A stretch of DNA of 64,000 nucleotides from a virus. The notes under the pieces are model-generated. The model worked only from the letters and a program-made list of their open reading frames with translations. It ran no database searches and had not been told where the DNA came from. The stretch is from IMG/VR virus record IMGVR_UViG_3300030012_005163, positions 62,001 to 126,000 of that record, one strand, 5' to 3'. Position 1 is the stretch's first letter. Each line of letters opens with the position of its first letter. Of this stretch, positions 4,957-22,008 are shown one piece after another. Position numbers and translations under genes: made by a program.

Positions 4957-5988
4957 ATGGGACTTCCTAAAAATTATAGAAAAAATTTAAAATTTACGCC
5001 TACACCACAAGGTTTTGAAGCCCGACAAGGAATTTTGAATGATATTGCGAATCCGGGAACGTATCTTCCTAAAGGTATTCTACATGAAGATATGGACAGA
5101 GAATTTGTTCAATATATGGAAGACGATATAACTTTAGTATTGAATGGTGAAAAAGTACCAGTTATTTTCTTAAGTATACAAAGATGGGCAGAGTTTGCAA
5201 AAACTTGGCAATTTTCGGATGAATACAAAAATATAACAATGCCTTTTATTACTATAATAAGAAAACCAGACGCACAAACAGGAACTAATTATGCAGGAAA
5301 ATTTAATGTGCCTGGTAAACCTACTTTTACATATATGAAAATACCTACATGGGATGGTAACATAAAAAGTTTTGACATTTATAAAATACCACAACCTGTT
5401 TCAGTAGATTTAAATTATGAAGTGAGATTATTTTGTACTAGAATGAGGGATTTAAATATATTAAATAGATTGATGTTAGATTCATTTTCTGCGGGTGAAA
5501 AATATATAAGAGTAAATGGACACCCAATTCCTCTTATGATGGACAATATTGGTGATGAGAGTTCCATACAAAATTTAGATGAAAAAAGATATTACGTACA
5601 ATTATTTAGTATTAAAATGTTAGGTTATTTATTAGATCCTAAACAATTTGAGGTTACACCTGCAATTAGTAGAGCAATTAACTTCTTTGAGGTTAGTGAA
5701 AATGTACATTATGCGGCATTTCAGATTAAACCGAGGGAAGAAGATACCTCAATTGAAATCAACATACAATATGCACCAGGAATTAATGTTTTCCAATTGG
5801 TAGTTGAAAATGATACAGAATATAACAATATTTCTCAACAAAATATTAGTTCTTTTACTATAACTGTAGATGGAGAAGTGAAAAACTTACCTTTTGAAGT
5901 GACATATGGACAAACATTAGAAATAAACATAACAAAATTAGATGTGGCAAATACCGCATTTCTTACATTAATAGGTAATACAAAATGA
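4957..5988 (+). CDS. Putative tail-completion / sheath-terminator protein, T4 gp15-like
   Basis: 343 residues. The central part (about residues 115-220) has the pattern of gp15-type terminators. A proline-led segment IPQPVSVDLNYEVRLFCTR is followed by a helix LNILNRLMLDSF, then NGHPIPLMMDNIGDES and a strand-rich RRYYVQLFSIKMLGYL-like region. gp15 caps the tail tube and sheath at the head end. The last 90 residues (from about 255) look like an added beta-sandwich (INIQYAPGINVFQLVVEN, FTITVDGEVKNLPFEVTYG) absent from T4 gp15 (272 residues). It starts 5 nt after the preceding gene and overlaps the next by ATGA, so this is an operon of three. Confidence 0.48.
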   Translation: MGLPKNYRKNLKFTPTPQGFEARQGILNDIANPGTYLPKGILHEDMDREFVQYMEDDITLVLNGEKVPVIFLSIQRWAEFAKTWQFSDEYKNITMPFITIIRKPDAQTGTNYAGKFNVPGKPTFTYMKIPTWDGNIKSFDIYKIPQPVSVDLNYEVRLFCTRMRDLNILNRLMLDSFSAGEKYIRVNGHPIPLMMDNIGDESSIQNLDEKRYYVQLFSIKMLGYLLDPKQFEVTPAISRAINFFEVSENVHYAAFQIKPREEDTSIEINIQYAPGINVFQLVVENDTEYNNISQQNISSFTITVDGEVKNLPFEVTYGQTLEINITKLDVANTAFLTLIGNTK

Positions 5989-6588: not shown

Positions 6589-9411
6589 ATGGCTTCAACA
6601 AATAGAATTTTCGTTAGTCCAGGTGTTTTTACATCAGAAAAGGATTTAACATTCGTAACAAGACAAGTGGGGGTAACTACTTTAGGGTTACTAGGGGAAA
6701 CTCCTAAAGGACCAGCATTTGAACCAGTATTCATCTCAAATTATGATGAATTTACTTCTTATTTTGGTGGTTTAGATCCTGCTAAATATAAGGGCAACGG
6801 ATACCCAAAATTTGAACTTAATTATATTGCGAGATCATTTTTAACTCAGACTAACCAACTTTATGTAAGTAGAGTATTAGGTTTATCTGGTTATAAAGCA
6901 GGAAATGCGTGGTGTATCACTTTAGACGCAGCTGCAGACCCTTCAACGGCAGCATCGGCAAGTACATCTACTTTTACTATGACATACAGTGCTAGTACAG
7001 GAGGTTCACCACTAACATTAGACTTTGATAGTGCAATTCTACAAGAATTATATGATGAAGGTGAAATTAGTAGTAGTTTTAGTGATTTAGGTTTAAAAGG
7101 AACTGGTGATACTATATCTATTTCTACACCGGCATATATAAAAGTAGGTACAACATTTTCAGGTGCTACTTTTGACTTAACTATAAACTCCACAGGATCT
7201 GGTAGTACTACTTCATTTGTAACTGGTAGTACAACAGGTACAGTAGTTACTTATACGGCATCTTCATATGGTATTGATGGTAGTGTAGTGGCAACTTTAA
7301 GATCTAGAGGTAATTATGGTGGAGACCAAATATTAGATTACACAGTATCAGGTATAACAGATGCTAGTATGACAAATACCTCCGCTATTGTAACTAATCC
7401 ATTTGGTAACTTTACTATAAGTGGTACGACAAGTAGTGGTAATGATTTTGATTATAATGTTTCATTAGATAGAACTAAAAAGAATTATTTACCTAACGTA
7501 TTTGGTGTTTATGCACAAGATAAAGAGACTGAACTTTTCGTAGAGGAATTATTCATTAATAGTTTAGATGATTTAAACACCGCAGGAAAAGTTAGAGGTT
7601 TAGATATTACGTTCCTTAGAATTAGTGGAGATTCAACTAATAACCTAAGTAACTATGAAGAAAAATATCAATCAGCCGCTTCACCATATGTTTTATCAGA
7701 ATTAAGAGGTAATAAATTACAAAGATTATTTAGGTTTATTACAATTTCTGACGGTGATGCAGCAAACAGAGATATTAAATTCTCAATTATTAATATTAAA
7801 CCAGATGATAAGACATTTGATTTAATAGTTAGAAGGTATAATGATACAGACGCTAATTTAAGTGTTATTGAGAAATTTTCTAAATTATCATTAGATCCGA
7901 GAGATAATGGATTTATTGGTAGAAAGATAGGTACTTCAGATGGAGAGTTTCCATTAAGAAGTAATTACATAATGGTAGAGATGGCAACAGATTACCCAAC
8001 TAACGGTATTCCAGCAGGTTTTGAAGGTGTACAAGTTAGAGATTACATAGGTGATAGAACGGCATTACCACCACAAATAGAATATGGAACAGAGTATCCA
8101 TCACTAAATAATTCACAATTAAGAAGATATTATTTAGGTCTTAACACAACTATTGGTGTGGATCAAGATTTCTTCGATTATAAAGGTTTAGATGCAGTTA
8201 CTAACTTAGCATATACAGGTAAATCAGATGGTTTCCATTTAGACGTAAATGCAGAAGGTGCTGAAATATCAGCGGGTGACGATAGTTACTTCCCATCATT
8301 ACAAGTGGGGATTTCAGCGTTTACTACTGAAGCTTCACTAGTAGGTGGACCATATGAAAAAGTAAGTGCTAGAAAATTCACATTTGCACCTTATGGTGGT
8401 TATGATGGATGGGATGTTTATCGTTTAGATAGAACAAATACTGACGCATACACTAAAACTGGAAGTAAAGGTAGTGAAGGATTAACTAATGGTACGTTTA
8501 CTACTTATACAACATCAGAAGGTGATGACGGTATTACTTCTGACTACTACGCATACTTAGAAGGTATTTACACTTATAATAATCCTGAAGCAGTTAACAT
8601 CAACGTATTTGCAACTCCAGGTTTAGACTTAAGAGATCAACCTTCATTAATTGATGCGGCAGTAGATATGGTTGAAAATGATAGAGCAGATTCATTATAT
8701 GTAATTACTACTCCTGATACGGATAGTTCTGGTGAAACTGTTTTAACTACGGATGAAGCGGTTGATATATTAGACGATTCCGGAATTGATAGTAACTATT
8801 CTGCAACTTACTTCCCTTGGTTACAAATGAATGATACAGAAAACAATCAGTACATTTGGTTACCACCAACTTTAGAAGTTGTTAGAAACATTGCTTTAAC
8901 GGATAACGTAGCATTCCCTTGGTTCGCAGCAGCTGGTTTAAACAGAGGTACAACAAACGCAATTAAAGCTAGAACAAAATTAACCTTAGATCAAAGAGAT
9001 GATTTATATGAAGGAAGAATTAATCCAATGGCAACATTCTCAGATGTAGGTGTTTGTATTTGGGGTAATAAAACCTTACAATCTAAAGATACGGCACTTA
9101 ACAGAATTAATGTTAGAAGATTGTTATTACAAGCTAGAAAACTTATTTCGGCAGTATCTATTAGATTATTATTCGAACAGAATGATGATGTTGTAAGAAA
9201 TCAATTCCTTTCATTAGTTAATCCAATATTGGATAATATTAGAAAAGAAAGAGGTTTAACTGACTTTAGAGTTGTATTAGATGATACACCAGAATCTATC
9301 GACAGAAATGAATTAAATGGTAGAATATTCATTAAACCGACAAGATCTTTAGAGTACATTAGTATTGAATTTAATATTACTAATACTGGAGCATCTTTTG
9401 ATGATATCTAA
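6589..9411 (+). CDS. Tail sheath protein, T4 gp18-like
   Basis: 940 residues. The N-terminus (VSPGVFTSEKDLTF, then TTLGLLGETPKGPAFEPVFI and a DEFTSYFGG segment) is the standard start of contractile sheath proteins. The C-terminal third contains RINPMATFSDVGVCIWGNKT and a final NGRIFIKPTRSLEYISIEF strand, also standard. Sheath subunits stack as hexameric rings around the tube and contract to drive injection. T4 gp18 is 659 residues; much of the excess is a Ser/Thr/Gly-rich beta region at about residues 115-290, probably surface domains. It has its own start motif and a strong terminator 20 nt after the stop, so it can be expressed as a single-gene unit at high level. Confidence 0.93.
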   Translation: MASTNRIFVSPGVFTSEKDLTFVTRQVGVTTLGLLGETPKGPAFEPVFISNYDEFTSYFGGLDPAKYKGNGYPKFELNYIARSFLTQTNQLYVSRVLGLSGYKAGNAWCITLDAAADPSTAASASTSTFTMTYSASTGGSPLTLDFDSAILQELYDEGEISSSFSDLGLKGTGDTISISTPAYIKVGTTFSGATFDLTINSTGSGSTTSFVTGSTTGTVVTYTASSYGIDGSVVATLRSRGNYGGDQILDYTVSGITDASMTNTSAIVTNPFGNFTISGTTSSGNDFDYNVSLDRTKKNYLPNVFGVYAQDKETELFVEELFINSLDDLNTAGKVRGLDITFLRISGDSTNNLSNYEEKYQSAASPYVLSELRGNKLQRLFRFITISDGDAANRDIKFSIINIKPDDKTFDLIVRRYNDTDANLSVIEKFSKLSLDPRDNGFIGRKIGTSDGEFPLRSNYIMVEMATDYPTNGIPAGFEGVQVRDYIGDRTALPPQIEYGTEYPSLNNSQLRRYYLGLNTTIGVDQDFFDYKGLDAVTNLAYTGKSDGFHLDVNAEGAEISAGDDSYFPSLQVGISAFTTEASLVGGPYEKVSARKFTFAPYGGYDGWDVYRLDRTNTDAYTKTGSKGSEGLTNGTFTTYTTSEGDDGITSDYYAYLEGIYTYNNPEAVNINVFATPGLDLRDQPSLIDAAVDMVENDRADSLYVITTPDTDSSGETVLTTDEAVDILDDSGIDSNYSATYFPWLQMNDTENNQYIWLPPTLEVVRNIALTDNVAFPWFAAAGLNRGTTNAIKARTKLTLDQRDDLYEGRINPMATFSDVGVCIWGNKTLQSKDTALNRINVRRLLLQARKLISAVSIRLLFEQNDDVVRNQFLSLVNPILDNIRKERGLTDFRVVLDDTPESIDRNELNGRIFIKPTRSLEYISIEFNITNTGASFDDI

Positions 9412-10323: not shown

Positions 10324-10767
10324 ATGGAAAAGAATATAAATAACGAAATTAAAAGAATGAAATCATTGTTTAATGAGGAAAGACTTTACGGTAATATAGA
10401 AAATGATAAAGAAAATTTAAATGAAGGTTTAAAGTCTACATTAAAAGGTATTGGTGGAATGTTTAGAGGTACTGGGTATAGTTATACTAAATATGCTTAT
10501 GAATTATCTGGGGCATTGAAAGAACTTAATGAAGAATTAGAAGAAACAATTAAAGAAGTTAATAAGATAATTGATAAATCTAATAAATCTAAAATGAGTA
10601 ATGTAGCATTTGATAGATTAACTGTTCATGTGGCAGATGCAATAGATACCTATAAAATGGCTATAGATACTAATGATATTATTATTAAAGACTTAGATTT
10701 CTCTGTTAGTTCTAATAGGGGGGATGAAAGAGTAGATGATACTCCACAATCACAATTACAAAGATAA
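10324..10767 (+). CDS. Small leader-bearing protein, candidate internal head protein
   Basis: 147 residues. The first 24 share 17 identical positions with the N-terminus of the 285-residue protein encoded at 14498: both have MEKNI, EIKR, LF and EERLYGN in the same register. A T4-type cleavage site L-N-E/G (ENLNEG) follows at about residue 37. The body is a Gly-rich segment (LKGIGGMFRGTGYS) then a long helix ALKELNEELEETIKEVNKII and an acidic tail. In T4, internal proteins carry a short N-terminal capsid-targeting sequence removed by the gp21 protease after L/I-x-E; this gene fits that model. No enzymatic motif is seen. It has its own start motif and sits between the HAD and tube genes. Confidence 0.6.
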   Translation: MEKNINNEIKRMKSLFNEERLYGNIENDKENLNEGLKSTLKGIGGMFRGTGYSYTKYAYELSGALKELNEELEETIKEVNKIIDKSNKSKMSNVAFDRLTVHVADAIDTYKMAIDTNDIIIKDLDFSVSSNRGDERVDDTPQSQLQR

Positions 10768-10852: not shown

Positions 10853-11341
10853 ATGGCAGATTTATTAATGAGAATGCCGGTTCCTTATGAACCATTAAGA
10901 AAGAATAGATGGATTCTTAGATTTCCAGATGATTTAGGAATTCAAGAATGGTGGATTTCTACTGCAAGTAGACCTAAATACACTAGTGATGAAGTATCAA
11001 TACCTTTTCTAAACACTGAAACTTATGTTATTGGTAGATTTAGATGGGAAACTATTTCTGTAACATTTAGAGACCCTATTGGACCATCTGCGACACAAGC
11101 ATTGATGGAGTGGGTAAGATTACATTCTGAGTCTGTAACTGGTAGACAAGGATATGCGGCAGGATACAAAAAGAATGTAGAGTTAGAAATGTTAGATCCT
11201 ACAGGTGTTGTAGTACAAAAATGGATTTTAGAGGGAACTCAATTAAATGATGCTGACTTTGGTGGTTTAGATTATAGTTCTTCCGACTTAGCAGACATTA
11301 CATGTACATTAAGATTTGATAGAGCGATTAACGTATTCTAA
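10853..11341 (+). CDS. Tail tube protein, T4 gp19-like
   Basis: 162 residues, the same size as T4 gp19 (163). Typical features are the opening PYEPLRKNRWILRFPDD, the RPKYTSDEVSIPFLNT segment, the WETISVTFRDP strand and the closing strand LADITCTLRFDRA. Hexameric rings of this protein form the inner tube through which DNA passes. The gene is monocistronic: it has its own ATATTTATT start motif upstream and an intrinsic terminator 24 nt after the stop, consistent with the need for many copies. Confidence 0.93.
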   Translation: MADLLMRMPVPYEPLRKNRWILRFPDDLGIQEWWISTASRPKYTSDEVSIPFLNTETYVIGRFRWETISVTFRDPIGPSATQALMEWVRLHSESVTGRQGYAAGYKKNVELEMLDPTGVVVQKWILEGTQLNDADFGGLDYSSSDLADITCTLRFDRAINVF

Positions 11342-14497: not shown

Positions 14498-15355
14498 ATG
14501 GAGAAAAACATTAGTGAAGAAATTAAAAGAATTAAAACTTTATTTACCGAAGAAAGGTTATATGGTAACTTAGTAGAAGCAACTAATCCAGATACTAATA
14601 ATGATAATGTTATAGACGCAACTGAGTTTACTGCTTCTGGTAATGAAATAGATAGGGTTGAAGCAGAATTATTTTTAACTTCAAATAGTAAACCTAAAGA
14701 AAATTTAGTAGATTATTGTTTAAGATCAGGATCAACATTAACATTACCAAAAGAAGTAATTGAAAGTAAGGTTCCTGTGTCATCAAAATTTGTAACAAAA
14801 ATTAATTCGTCAGGTACAAACTGTTTTTGGGAAATGAGAAATCCATCATCTGCAATTATTACTGCACCACAAGTTTCGATGGTATATATTTTAGAAGGTT
14901 ATAAAATGGGATTTTTTGTTAGATTAAGTCCCGTTATTAATTTGAGTACGTTAGCAGATGCTGCTAAAACTTTGGAATATAGAGATCCTCTTCTTACATC
15001 ACTAATCACAACTAATGCGGTTAGAAATAAAGAAGAAAAAATTGAGTATCTTAAATTTGTTGGTAAGTTAAATCCATCTCAATTTTCATCAACACCTAGT
15101 TACTCAGACATTGAATACGTAGATTTAAAGTTTACTGGTTTTTATGATACTAAATTTAGGCAAGCAGAAAACAGATTAGAACAACCATTATTTAAATCAT
15201 TAGAGCATTTACCAAATGGTGGGTACAGACCATTAGATGGCGGCGGAACTAGAATTGACAATTACGCCCCAAAAGTTGATGGAATTATTGAAGAATTAGG
15301 TATTTCACCTGGTAGTGGTAAGATAGAGAGTATAATTGATAATTTACAAAGTTAA
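14498..15355 (+). CDS. Leader-bearing protein with EF-hand-like calcium loop
   Basis: 285 residues. The leader MEKNISEEIKRIKTLFTEER, then LYGNLVEA, is nearly the same as that of the 147-residue protein at 10324 and ends in L-V-E/A, a prohead-protease-type site at residues 25-28. Directly after it, residues 32-43 (DTNNDNVIDATE) match a dockerin/EF-hand calcium loop: ligands at D32, N34, D36, D40 and E43 with Ile at position 8. The rest is mixed alpha/beta without recognised motifs and ends in a helical tail. It is followed at 3 nt by the 831-residue leader protein, so the two are co-expressed. An internal head or ejected protein is the favoured inference. Confidence 0.6.
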   Translation: MEKNISEEIKRIKTLFTEERLYGNLVEATNPDTNNDNVIDATEFTASGNEIDRVEAELFLTSNSKPKENLVDYCLRSGSTLTLPKEVIESKVPVSSKFVTKINSSGTNCFWEMRNPSSAIITAPQVSMVYILEGYKMGFFVRLSPVINLSTLADAAKTLEYRDPLLTSLITTNAVRNKEEKIEYLKFVGKLNPSQFSSTPSYSDIEYVDLKFTGFYDTKFRQAENRLEQPLFKSLEHLPNGGYRPLDGGGTRIDNYAPKVDGIIEELGISPGSGKIESIIDNLQS

Positions 15356-17933: not shown

Positions 17934-18719
17934 ATGGAAAATGTACACAATAATATATTGGATCCTAATTATATTCCTGAAGAATTAAAAACACCTTATG
18001 ATGTTATTGAATTACCTTCACAAGGATTATTATATAAGGATAAATTATCTAAAGTAAAAATAGAATTTTTAACTGCAATGGATGAGAATATTTTAAGTTC
18101 TCCTAACTTAAGTTCTAATCCTAATGAAATGATTAATTTATTAATTAAAAATAAAGTTAAAGATTTAAATATGTCTCCTGAAGATTTATTAGATGGTGAT
18201 AGAATGGCGATTTTAATATTTTTAAGAGCAACTGCATTTGGGCATATGTATCAACAAATGGTTTACGATCCTTCAGAAGAGGACTTTGTTGAAGTGGAAA
18301 TAGATTTAACTCAATTAGAACATAAAAAATTATTAATTAAACCAGATAATAATGACGAATTTGATTTTATTTTACCTTCGTCAAAAAAGTTGATTAAATT
18401 TAAATTTCTTACTGCAGGTGATGAAGAGTCTATAGATAATTACGATAAAGAGTTAATGAAAAGGAGAGGTGACAATTTATCACAAAAAATTACTTTAAGA
18501 TTAGAAAAATGTGTTACAGAAATTGATGGGGAAAGGGATAAAATTAAAATATCTAATATTTTAAAGAAATTACCTATTATGGATTCTAGAACTTTAAGAA
18601 AGTATATAGAAAAAAATGAACCAGGAATAAATATGGAAACAAAAGGTCGGACTCAGGGGGGAGGGTCCGTTAGTTGCTTTCTTACACTCGGAGCAAATTT
18701 TTTCTGGCCTCAACTCTAA
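17934..18719 (+). CDS. Baseplate/tail-assembly protein, T4 gp26-like (zero-frame product)
   Basis: 261 residues. The pattern DVIELPSQGLLYKDKLSKVK, IEFLTAMDENIL, LLDGDRMAILIFLRATAFG is that of the T4 baseplate family containing gp26-like proteins. It is placed between tube and tape-measure genes, as genes 26/51 are in T4 and as the lambda G/GT chaperones are in other tails. The C-terminus FLTLGANFFWPQL looks natural for the family. Just before it the RNA has a GC-rich hairpin with a G6A run (18648-18669). In the +1 frame an ORF without a start codon continues to 18855. Ribosomes that shift would make a 306-307-residue form (243 zero-frame residues plus 64). Similar two-product arrangements are used by tail assembly chaperones. 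An indel in the G-run is the main alternative. Confidence 0.75.
   Translation: MENVHNNILDPNYIPEELKTPYDVIELPSQGLLYKDKLSKVKIEFLTAMDENILSSPNLSSNPNEMINLLIKNKVKDLNMSPEDLLDGDRMAILIFLRATAFGHMYQQMVYDPSEEDFVEVEIDLTQLEHKKLLIKPDNNDEFDFILPSSKKLIKFKFLTAGDEESIDNYDKELMKRRGDNLSQKITLRLEKCVTEIDGERDKIKISNILKKLPIMDSRTLRKYIEKNEPGINMETKGRTQGGGSVSCFLTLGANFFWPQL
18648..18669 (+). promoter_or_regulatory. Candidate frameshift element: GC-rich hairpin enclosing G6A run
   Basis: CGGACTC (18648-18654) can pair with GGGTCCG (18663-18669), 7 bp including one G-U, leaving an 8-nt loop that contains GGGGGGA (18656-18662). Zero-frame codons are CAG GGG GGA GGG. A +1 slip of GGG, or a -2 slip of GGA onto GGG, both lead to GAG at 18661-18663 and the downstream frame. 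It is the most G-rich stretch in the area. Confidence 0.55.
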
Positions 18720-18855
18720 TTTTTTACAACATTTACATAAAGAAATTTCTTTTTTAGTTAAGAAAGGTGGGTTTACTTATTCCGATATTATGGTAATGCC
18801 TACATATTCTAGAAGAATTTTTATAGAAAACCTTAAACCAAAAGACAATAAATAA
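18661..18855 (+). CDS. Frameshift-accessible C-terminal extension of gp26-like protein (gp51-position ORF)
   Basis: The frame is open from 18631 (after TAA at 18628-18630) to TAA at 18853-18855. It has no ATG, GTG or TTG before an ATG near the end, so independent initiation cannot make the full segment. From the slip site it reads EGPLVAFLHSEQIFSGLN, then NFLQHLHKEISFLVKKGGF, then TYSDIMVMPTYSRRIFIENL. This looks like a real folded domain: a helix, a GGFTYSDI turn, then MP and an R-R-x-F-I helix. It resembles short conserved segments that follow gp26-like genes in other phages. It covers the 18720-18855 space that would otherwise be empty. Translation probably depends on the recoding element at 18648-18669. 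Confidence 0.6.
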   Translation, partial: EGPLVAFLHSEQIFSGLNSNFLQHLHKEISFLVKKGGFTYSDIMVMPTYSRRIFIENLKPKDNK

Positions 18856-20118: not shown

Positions 20119-22008
20119 ATGGCAGAGTTCGATGATGATTGGTATAAAGAACAATCAGGTAATCTTAAAAAATTATTAGATGAAACTAAGACTTTTTATA
20201 GTCAGGTTGATGGTTTAAGTAGGAAAACACGTCAAAGGGAAAAACAAGAAGTAGAAGATTTACTTAAAAAATTAAAATCTCAAGTCGAATTAGGTGGTGA
20301 AGAAGCTAAAAATGCCAAAGAATTAATTAAATTAGCACAAAAAAGATTAAAAGTTATTACTTCTCAATACGAAGTAACAGGAAGAATTAGACAAGAAACA
20401 CAACAAACTTTACAAGATTTTAAAAAGTTTATTGAGACGAGTGCTGCTCAATACAACTACGCACAAAAAATTGCTAAAGAATACTTAACAGTAAGTAGAA
20501 ATATAGGTGTTAGTGGTGCACATCAAGAAAGATTAACTAAAAACTTTAAAATGTCGTTACCTGAAGTAGAACAATTAGGTGGTAGTTTAGAAGATGTTAC
20601 AGATATTATGCAAACAATGGCGGAAGAATCAGGTAGAGCTAGAATTTTAGATCCTAGTGATGTAACAAATATTGAAGAAATTGCTAGAGCATTAAATATG
20701 AGTGCTAGTGAAACTACAAAGATGTCAGAAACGTTTGATCTTATGGGAATATCTACTGAAAGTATGAAAAATAGTTTACAAGATGTTTATAAAGAATCAA
20801 GTAAATTAGGATTGAACGCTAATAAGGTAGTAAAACAATTAAGTAATAATATGAAGTCTATACAGTCTTATTCATTTTCAAGTGGAGTAAGAGGTATGAC
20901 TGAAATGGCTAAACAAGCAGTAAGAATGAGGATAGATGTATCTGATGTTTTACAAATGGCTGATAAATTTTATCAACCCGAAGCTGCAATTGAAGCAGCA
21001 GCTAATTTACAAATGTTAGGTGGGGATATAGCTAAAGCGTTTGGTGATCCATTTGAAACTATGTATATGGCTCGTAATAAACCTGAAGAATTGGCTAAAA
21101 AATTAGGTGACATGACTGAAAACATGTTACAATTTAATGAAGAAAGTGGTAGATACGAACTTCCAGCAGAAGCTAGAATGCAATTGAAAGCTGCAGGTGA
21201 TCAGTTAGGAATTAATACTGAAAAAATGGTTGAGATGGCTAGACAATCTAGTAAAATCAAAGACTTAAAGATGAAATTCACTGCAATTGGTGACAACGAT
21301 ATGAAAGAGAATTTAGCATCATTAGCTAAATTTTCGGAAGAGAAGGGTGAATTTGTTATACAACATAATGGGGAAGAATTAGGATTAAATGAAATTTCTG
21401 ATGGAATGGCTGAAGAAATAATGGACGCCAATGCTAATGAAGGGAAAACAGATAGTGATTTATTTAAAAATATTGCCATTAACACTCAAACTATGAGTGA
21501 ACAATTAGCTAGTTTAAAAGAGAGTAGTATGGCAACTATTGCAGGAACAACAGATTTATATGAAATTACTGCAGAACAAATGAAAAAATCTTTAGTTACA
21601 CCATTAAAAAAGAGTATGGAAACGGCACAACAATCTTTTATTGAAAATTTCAGTCCTAAAAGTTTATTTGAAGGTGATACATGGAAAAATACGTTAATGG
21701 GGTTTGAAGAAATAAAACAAGAATCTTTAGATTCATTAGAAGAGTATTATAGGGACGTATTAAATATCCCATTACCTGAAGATAATGTAACACCAGGTCC
21801 CGATAATGAAAATAACAATGACAATGTTAATCCCGCTCCTATGGCAAGCACACAAAATATTAATTTAGATGTTGCAATAAATGGAGATGGAACGTTTACA
21901 CCTGCACAAATGGATATGATTTCTAATAAAATTACACAAAAAATTGTAAATGGGATTGAAGTAAAATCAGATGGACAAGATATTGAGGTAGTACTTAATA
22001 TAACTTAA
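20119..22008 (+). CDS. Tape measure protein
   Basis: 629 residues, almost entirely alpha-helical with coiled coils in residues 1-110 and heptad-rich stretches throughout. The segment FIETSAAQYNYAQKIAKEYL followed by TVSRNIGVSG, and a central GVRGMTEMAKQAVRMRI region, are typical of tape measure proteins. These fill the tail tube, set its length and are ejected with the DNA. The gene lies after the tube and gp26-like genes and before the hub genes, as gene 29 does in T4. At about 0.15 nm per residue, 629 residues predict a tail of about 95 nm, close to T4 (590 residues, about 100 nm). A Pro/Asn-rich linker (about 555-575) and a small C-terminal beta domain end the protein. Confidence 0.72.
   Translation: MAEFDDDWYKEQSGNLKKLLDETKTFYSQVDGLSRKTRQREKQEVEDLLKKLKSQVELGGEEAKNAKELIKLAQKRLKVITSQYEVTGRIRQETQQTLQDFKKFIETSAAQYNYAQKIAKEYLTVSRNIGVSGAHQERLTKNFKMSLPEVEQLGGSLEDVTDIMQTMAEESGRARILDPSDVTNIEEIARALNMSASETTKMSETFDLMGISTESMKNSLQDVYKESSKLGLNANKVVKQLSNNMKSIQSYSFSSGVRGMTEMAKQAVRMRIDVSDVLQMADKFYQPEAAIEAAANLQMLGGDIAKAFGDPFETMYMARNKPEELAKKLGDMTENMLQFNEESGRYELPAEARMQLKAAGDQLGINTEKMVEMARQSSKIKDLKMKFTAIGDNDMKENLASLAKFSEEKGEFVIQHNGEELGLNEISDGMAEEIMDANANEGKTDSDLFKNIAINTQTMSEQLASLKESSMATIAGTTDLYEITAEQMKKSLVTPLKKSMETAQQSFIENFSPKSLFEGDTWKNTLMGFEEIKQESLDSLEEYYRDVLNIPLPEDNVTPGPDNENNNDNVNPAPMASTQNINLDVAINGDGTFTPAQMDMISNKITQKIVNGIEVKSDGQDIEVVLNIT

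What the first reader, a model, noticed from the sequence alone, without database searches (positions are those of the whole stretch)
18631..18855. Likely programmed frameshift at the end of the gp26-like gene (tail-chaperone position)
The zero frame ends naturally at FFWPQL (18719). A second ORF in the +1 frame is open from 18631 to 18855, looks protein-coding, and has no ATG, GTG or TTG near its beginning. Where the frames meet is G6A (18656-18662), in the loop of a 7-bp GC-rich hairpin, in a genome that is about 70% A+T. A +1 slip on GGG or a -2 slip of GGA onto GGG both join the frames (306-307 residues). Mu is known to use a -2 shift on a G-rich run, and many tails make two chaperone forms by frameshifting from genes between tube and tape measure, exactly this position. 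T4 genes 26 and 51 occupy the same place as two separate genes.
Basis: partly seen in the sequence, partly recalled or inferred. Interest (0 to 1): 0.85.

Follow-up and report, generated by a model that had tools for sequence, protein, structure and literature searches.

The report
Frameshifted tail chaperone in uncultivated phage
This phage very probably makes two versions of a tail-building helper protein from one gene by making some ribosomes skip one letter at a fixed spot just after an RNA hairpin; the trick is known in other phages, but the signal used here looks different.

Summary
In 41 distinct rows (54 IMG/VR loci plus the window) the gp26-like gene ends at the same place and a conserved +1-frame ORF overlaps it. 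In 21 of 41 a +1-frame stop lies between the G-rich hairpin and the second ORF, so a shift at G6A would be useless there. TTTCTTA, just 3' of that stop, is present in 41 of 41; its Leu codon CTT is 106 of 1122 Leu codons elsewhere in these genes. Synonymous divergence halves from there to the zero-frame stop, as expected where two frames are read. Best reading: +1 slip on UUU_CUU_A (18678-18684), giving a 261-aa short and a 306-aa long tail assembly chaperone. The hairpin covaries and is more stable than synonymous controls in 31 of 41; it probably stimulates the shift from the 5' side. Frameshifted chaperones are already reported for T4-like phages, so this is a new variant of a known kind. 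Nothing here is shown by experiment.

The parts
17934..18719 (+). Zero-frame ORF, short tail assembly chaperone (TAC-N, T4 gp26-like), 261 aa
   Evidence: PF12322 E=5e-6, 26.8 bits against cut-off 24.5; phrog_150 'baseplate hub' E=3.8e-8; AlphaFold2 model pLDDT 90
18648..18669 (+). 5' hairpin, 7-bp stem, G-rich 8-nt loop, ending 8 nt before the slip codon TTT
   Evidence: 40 distinct rows: 25 cells changed on both sides against 8.8 in shuffles; more stable than synonymous recodings at z<-2 in 31 of 41
18656..18662 (+). G6A run in the hairpin loop (not the slip site)
   Evidence: +1-frame stops 3' of it in 21 of 41 rows
18678..18684 (+). Proposed +1 slip site TTT CTT A (UUU to UUC, or CUU to UUA)
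   Evidence: Present in 41 of 41 distinct rows; CTT is 106 of 1122 Leu codons elsewhere in these genes
18685..18716 (+). Dual-coded overlap, read in both frames
   Evidence: pS 0.28-0.32 in the last three 11-codon windows against body mean 0.60 and body minimum 0.496
18682..18855 (+). +1-frame C-terminal extension (TAC-C) with its stop; joined to 17934-18680 it gives the 306-aa long form (TAC-NC)
   Evidence: Tail pS 0.63, pN 0.35; helical model, mean pLDDT 82; no ATG/GTG/TTG from slip to +12 in 33 of 41 rows
10853..11341 (+). Tail tube protein (context)
   Evidence: phrog_4542 E=4.5e-24
6589..9411 (+). Tail sheath (context)
   Evidence: phrog_23 E=7.4e-62
20119..22008 (+). Tape-measure-like protein (context, weak)
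   Evidence: phrog_2276 E=1.9e-4 over 57 residues

Best explanation
The gene encodes a tail assembly chaperone in two forms. Most ribosomes read the zero frame to 18719 and make the 261-aa short form. A minority slip one base forward on UUU_CUU_A (18678-18684): peptidyl-tRNA-Phe moves from UUU to UUC, or peptidyl-tRNA-Leu from CUU to UUA. Both give the same 306-aa product: 250 residues shared with the short form, then a 56-residue, mostly helical extension. The hairpin 18648-18669 ends 8 nt before the slip codon, where it could re-form at the mRNA exit behind the paused ribosome. It probably favours forward slippage, doing the job that a Shine-Dalgarno/anti-Shine-Dalgarno duplex does in RF2. 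By analogy with lambda gpG/gpGT, the short form would bind the tape measure and the extension would recruit tube subunits. Shown here: the frames, their conservation, the invariant heptamer, dual coding, the covarying hairpin. Inferred: that slippage happens, its rate, the hairpin's role, the chaperone function.
For: TTTCTTA in 41 of 41 distinct rows at the same column (L036 is offset by one codon). Leu CTT there 41 of 41, against 106 of 1122 elsewhere; at the other Leu columns that are at least 95% conserved CTT reaches at most 10 of 41. A +1-frame stop whose first base is 8 nt before TTT in 21 of 41 brackets the shift between there and the zero-frame stop. pS 0.28-0.32 in the last three windows against mean 0.60, minimum 0.496, in 226 body windows. 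Third-base C 27% in the overlap against 6% in the body. The +1 tail is conserved, pS 0.63 and pN 0.35. Hairpin covariation and stability against synonymous recoding. A more distant group has another slip-like site, TTTTTTTGGCC, in 20 of 20 distinct rows, with the same +1 offset. Of 12 further phage records, 8 have a +1 ORF and 4 a -1 ORF running past the end of the same gene. T4 gp26 and gp51 both match PF12322; a T4 review lists both as hub assembly chaperones (PMC3004832, passages). Top two rows of a second look at PDB matches: YqbN (3klu, Z 6.2) and the HK97 tail assembly chaperone (2ob9, Z 6.1). Upstream hairpins stimulate +1 frameshifting on E. coli 70S ribosomes in vitro (PMC6321510, abstract and sections 2.1 and 3.1).
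Against: No protein or ribosome-profiling data. In the window itself the +1 frame is open from 18631, so G6A is excluded there only by comparison with relatives. TTTCTTA also occurs in frame at 5959, 18405 and 29362 of the window, so the heptamer alone cannot be sufficient. In 10 of 41 rows the hairpin is not more stable than controls at z<-2: the five that lost the usual register (L035, L046, L049, L050, L052) and L032, L034, L036, L048, L070. In one search two of five measures did not exceed the shuffles (pairs with a change on both sides 4 against 3.3; further pair types 10 against 8.2, 59 of 500), and the outermost pair is unpaired in 20 of 40. RNAalifold over 40 rows gives only a 3-bp helix. 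PDB Z near 6 may be only a common arrangement; Foldseek found nothing significant in PDB. The +1 domain does not match T4 gp51 significantly (E 0.12), nor the zero-frame family T4 gp26 or gp51.
Confidence: 0.9

Rival explanations
1. The shift happens at G6A, by +1 on GGG or by -2 from GGA to GGG as in Mu.
For: G-rich loop conserved (G invariant at columns 16, 17, 19 of A4); the +1 frame is open from 18631 in the window; Mu uses -2 (PMC5009743, passages).
Against: 21 of 41 rows have a +1-frame stop 3' of the G-run and 5' of the conserved second ORF. The run itself varies (for example TGGAGGT, TGGGGGT, GGGAGGA). No sign of two-frame coding between it and TTTCTTA: 11-codon pS is 0.52 or more until the windows reach the slip column.
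Confidence: 0.04
2. +1 shift at the zero-frame stop (NTC TRA), RF2-like, or at the FFWP Phe codons as in the second group.
For: The stop position is conserved; codon -3 ends in C in 37 of 40; the second group has TTTTTTTGGCC in 20 of 20 distinct rows.
Against: The biased third base at codon -30 (TTC, ATC or CTC in 30 of 40, against TTT 292: TTC 39 for Phe in the body) and the drop in pS begin 5' of both sites. The FFWP codons vary in the window family (TTT TTC, TTT TTA, TTA TTT, TTT TGG). Neither explains the invariant CTT.
Confidence: 0.03
3. The second ORF is a separate gene with its own start, as T4 genes 26 and 51 are separate.
For: Some rows have an ATG just after the zero-frame stop (at +10 in L038, L051, L056, L064, L066, L074).
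Against: 33 of 41 have no ATG/GTG/TTG from slip to +12, and 18 of 41 none from the preceding +1 stop to +12. It would not explain TTTCTTA or the conserved overlap.
Confidence: 0.02
4. Transcriptional slippage at the G-run, or an assembly indel.
For: Homopolymer G6.
Against: 41 distinct rows share the offset; slippage at G6 meets the same +1 stops; TTTCTTA has no long homopolymer.
Confidence: 0.01

Closest known systems
T4-like tail assembly chaperones TAC-N/TAC-NC (Vladimirov, Gautam and Davidson 2022, Virology 566:9-15; paper not held: title seen in reference lists, content second-hand in PMC10885494 and PMC12846349, passages; its abstract recalled only)
   Same: Short and long chaperone form in T4-like phages; poly-T signals are mentioned second-hand, as -1 signals, for T4-like TAC-N genes
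   Different: Here +1 on TTTCTTA, 7 codons 5' of the FFWP motif, with a covarying 5' hairpin, in an uncultivated family
Lambda gpG/gpGT frameshift (PMC5009743, passages)
   Same: Two chaperone forms from one gene, the long one by frameshift near the 3' end
   Different: Lambda uses -1; the review says the shift is conserved 'except T4' and names HSTV-2 as very likely +1
Phage Mu -2 frameshift
   Same: Also reaches the +1 frame
   Different: A -2 slip has no matching codon on TTTCTTA, and the G-run is not the slip site
RF2 (prfB) +1 frameshift, including Flavobacterium johnsoniae (PMC8710568, passages)
   Same: +1, a CUU codon, a purine-rich element 5' of it
   Different: No stop codon in the A site; the G-run ends 16 nt from TTT instead of 3 nt; a hairpin instead of SD pairing
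Upstream-hairpin stimulation of +1 frameshifting (PMC6321510, abstract and sections 2.1, 3.1)
   Same: Hairpin 5' of a +1 site, shown on E. coli 70S in vitro
   Different: Those are designed reporters with a 12-bp stem next to an RF2-type site; here a natural, covarying element

Membership tests
PF12322 / T4 gp26 family | Profile match above the curated cut-off | tested here: met
   26.8 bits against 24.5; T4 gp26 and gp51 match the same family
Tail assembly chaperone TAC-N/TAC-NC | Gene between tube and tape measure | tested here: inconclusive
   Tube 10853-11341 is upstream with three ORFs between; the downstream tape-measure match (20119-22008) is weak, E=1.9e-4. In Flavobacterium phage immuto the order sheath, tail completion protein, this gene, small ORF, tape measure is as deposited
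Tail assembly chaperone TAC-N/TAC-NC | Conserved out-of-frame C-terminal extension reached near the end of the short ORF | tested here: met
   41 of 41 distinct rows
Tail assembly chaperone TAC-N/TAC-NC | Chaperone fold | tested here: inconclusive
   HK97 TAC 2ob9 Z 6.1 and YqbN 3klu Z 6.2 are the top two rows but under Z 8; Foldseek gave no significant PDB match
Tail assembly chaperone TAC-N/TAC-NC | Binds tape measure and tube; fixed ratio of forms; absent from virion | not testable with these tools
   Needs experiment
Mu-type -2 frameshift on a G-run | G-run is the slip site | tested here: not met
   +1-frame stops 3' of the G-run in 21 of 41 rows
RF2-type +1 frameshift | Stop codon in the A site at the slip | tested here: not met
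   Codon after CTT is AGA, ACA, ACG, AGG or AAC
RF2-type +1 frameshift | SD-like element 3 nt 5' of the slip codon | tested here: not met
   The G-run ends 16 nt before TTT
Hairpin-stimulated +1 frameshift | Stable conserved hairpin just 5' of the slip site | tested here: met
   above synonymous controls in 31 of 41, not in 10 of 41; register shifted in 5 of 41
Hairpin-stimulated +1 frameshift | Breaking the stem lowers frameshifting, restoring it rescues | not testable with these tools
   Needs a reporter assay

The most novel reading that the evidence does not exclude
A natural +1 programmed frameshift driven mainly by a 5' mRNA hairpin, evolved because the hosts (probably Bacteroidota, whose ribosomes hide the anti-Shine-Dalgarno) make poor use of the RF2-style rRNA-mRNA duplex; the hairpin replaces that duplex at the ribosome's mRNA exit.
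Probability: 0.4. Interest if true: 0.75.

Novelty: new variant of a known kind. Interest (0 to 1): 0.5.

Why it matters
A 2016 review (PMC5009743, passage) still listed T4 as the exception to the conserved tail-chaperone frameshift. Here one gp26-type family shows the shift with a clear signal in 41 distinct rows, and 12 further records of the wider family show +1 or -1 ORFs at the same place, which suggests that the split T4 genes 26/51 are the derived state. The 5' hairpin offers a natural, testable case of how a structure behind the ribosome may promote forward slippage, perhaps in hosts whose ribosomes rarely use Shine-Dalgarno pairing. For annotation: the 45 codons past 18719 belong to a long chaperone, not to an intergenic gap or a separate small gene.

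Tried and rejected
Shift at G6A (+1 or -2), shift at the zero-frame stop, shift at FFWP, independent start, transcriptional slippage and assembly indel were considered and rejected (see rivals). A Shine-Dalgarno role for the G-run was judged unlikely: 16 nt spacing, and 2 of 36 window starts with an SD-like tetramer; it is not excluded. A conserved 3' structure was sought from -33 to +40 over 40 rows and none was predicted. A genome-contig scan found no relative, so the host is not known directly. Profile comparison of the +1 domain and of the zero-frame family with T4 gp51/gp26 gave nothing significant. PDB sequence search gave no row for the zero-frame family and three weak, unrelated rows for the +1 domain. 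Foldseek of the +1 domain against viral models had no hit under E 0.3, although gp51-like and tail or tape-measure chaperone entries appear among the weak rows. The +1 ORFs had no Pfam family at E<=1 (window only) and in PHROGs only one weak hit (E 0.061) among the five tried. Two further papers that cite Vladimirov 2022 were looked at (PMC11131426, PMC9603447, passages) and added nothing.

Counts: one search kept 80 of 218 relatives. I used L021-L074 (54) plus the window, 55 rows, 41 distinct; L075 was dropped because it ends before the region; L076-L100 (25) gave 20 distinct rows. L036, one codon out of step, was left out of the per-codon table (n = 40), the overlap rates and the folds, and used with its offset elsewhere. 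Related sequences are counted as separate, so the counts are not independent events.

Full report
What is there. The zero frame 17934-18719 encodes 261 aa ending NFFWPQL. It matches Pfam PF12322 (the family of T4 gp26 and gp51) at 26.8 bits against a cut-off of 24.5 and phrog_150 'baseplate hub'. The +1 frame is open from 18631 with its stop codon at 18853-18855 and has no ATG, GTG or TTG before 18790. G6A (18656-18662) sits in the loop of a 7-bp hairpin, 18648-18669. The window is part of a virus record of 198,361 bases.

Relatives. Scans of IMG/VR gave close relatives; 54 loci plus the window reduce to 41 distinct rows. All 41 keep the zero-frame end and the +1 ORF, so the arrangement is not an indel. 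In 21 of 41 the +1 frame has a stop 47 nt before the zero-frame stop (44 in L036, which is one codon out of step), that is between the hairpin and the second ORF. A shift on the G-run cannot produce the fusion there. TTTCTTA begins 8 nt after the first base of that stop and is present in 41 of 41. CTT is 106 of 1122 Leu codons in the gene bodies; at this column it is 41 of 41, and at the other Leu columns at least 95% conserved it reaches at most 10 of 41.

Two-frame coding. The last three 11-codon windows, from the slip to the zero-frame stop, have pS of 0.28-0.32, against a mean of 0.60 and a minimum of 0.496 in 226 body windows. Third-base C rises from 6% to 27%, for example at codon -30 (TTC, ATC or CTC in 30 of 40), where it falls on the middle base of a +1-frame codon that is mostly Ser. 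The +1 tail past the stop has pS 0.63 and pN 0.35. ATG, GTG and TTG are missing from slip to +12 in 33 of 41. The fusion is 249 + 57 = 306 residues.

Direction. On TTTCTTA a +1 slip re-pairs UUU to UUC or CUU to UUA; a -2 slip has no matching codon. Both +1 routes give the same protein and I cannot tell them apart. The codon 5' of TTT ends in C in 34 of 40, which is unexplained. The heptamer is not sufficient by itself, since it also occurs in frame at 5959, 18405 and 29362.

Hairpin. Over 40 distinct rows 83.6% of cells pair (72.8% in shuffles), 25 cells are changed on both sides (8.8) and the covariation score is 0.261 (0.123), each reached by 0 of 500 shuffles; the number of pairs with a change on both sides (4 against 3.3) and of further pair types (10 against 8.2) are not unusual. 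Slid registers score lower on percent paired, doubly changed cells and covariation score. Shuffles do not allow for relatedness. In 31 of 41 rows the hairpin is more stable than synonymous recodings at z<-2, the window included; 10 are not. RNAalifold on the 36 rows that keep the register gives a 6-bp helix at -9.5 against -0.3 for column shuffles; over 40 rows with the five others included it gives only 3 bp. Those five (L035, L046, L049, L050, L052) fold a shifted hairpin, no better than controls; in four of them the run reads AGGAGG. CGG, used in the window's stem, is 2 of 622 Arg codons in 32 window ORFs. No 3' structure was predicted. Upstream hairpins stimulate +1 frameshifting on 70S ribosomes in vitro, less than SD pairing does and only without RF2 at that site (PMC6321510, section 2.1), so a stimulating role is plausible, not shown.

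Host. Only 2 of 36 window starts carry an SD-like tetramer and the upstream region is A-rich. This resembles Bacteroidota, whose ribosomes are reported not to recognise SD sequences (PMC9976891, start of abstract in the listing). The ten phage records matched by tblastn include four Flavobacterium phages, but also phages of Microcystis, Streptomyces and Streptococcus. The host is an inference. F. johnsoniae keeps an SD-type prfB frameshift (PMC8710568, passages), reported as inefficient (PMC12421855, passages); so SD-driven shifts are not impossible in such hosts.

Wider family. A second group (20 distinct rows, 30-35% identity) has TTTTTTTGGCC in 20 of 20, 21 or 24 nt before the zero-frame stop, and in the tightest rows the +1 frame opens only 23 nt before that stop. 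Of 12 further phage records read, 8 have a +1 ORF of 66-89 aa past the stop (immuto, Mel-JY01, LR756508, GXN1, BRock, SP-15, LIS04, RM378) and 4 a -1 ORF of 52-75 aa (Atu_ph07, PA5oct, RAS14, LR756511). In most of these I did not pin down the slip site. Frame and slip site seem to move while the architecture stays. T4 gp26 and gp51 both match PF12322; profile matches of the window families to them were not significant.

Structure. The short form is predicted at pLDDT 90 and has 57 matches at E<=0.001 among viral models, several named baseplate hub proteins. In a second look at PDB matches the top two rows are YqbN (3klu, Z 6.2; that YqbN belongs to an XkdN-like chaperone family is recalled) and the HK97 tail assembly chaperone (2ob9, Z 6.1), ahead of the third at 4.7. 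Z under 8 is suggestive only, and Foldseek itself ranked nothing significant. The extension is mostly helical.

Known or new. [quoted passage not shown] not read; second-hand). In my ten paper searches none of the listed titles and abstract starts, nor the passages I read, described this slip site or a natural 5' hairpin for a phage tail chaperone. The library lacks most subscription papers, including the key one. I therefore call it a new variant of a known kind, with the reservation that the 2022 paper may already show it.

Noticed in passing
10324-10767 and 14498-15355: The two proteins share an N-terminal motif (MEKNI..EIKR.K.LF.EERLYGN); ORFs at 1936, 11425, 15359 and 32878 begin with loosely similar charged stretches, possibly a head-targeting signal.
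   Followed up: no
window ORF starts (36 examined): Only 2 of 36 starts have an SD-like tetramer in the 20 bases before them; A-rich around -14 to -10 and 75% A at -4.
   Followed up: partly
L076-L100, end of the gp26-like gene: A second group has TTTTTTTGGCC as the likely slip site in 20 of 20 distinct rows.
   Followed up: partly
L102, L104, L105, L018: Atu_ph07, PA5oct, RAS14 and LR756511 appear to use -1 instead of +1 for the same gene.
   Followed up: no
L035, L049, L050, L052, hairpin region: Where the usual hairpin register is lost, the G-run reads AGGAGG, a good Shine-Dalgarno sequence, though it ends 16 nt before the slip codon.
   Followed up: no
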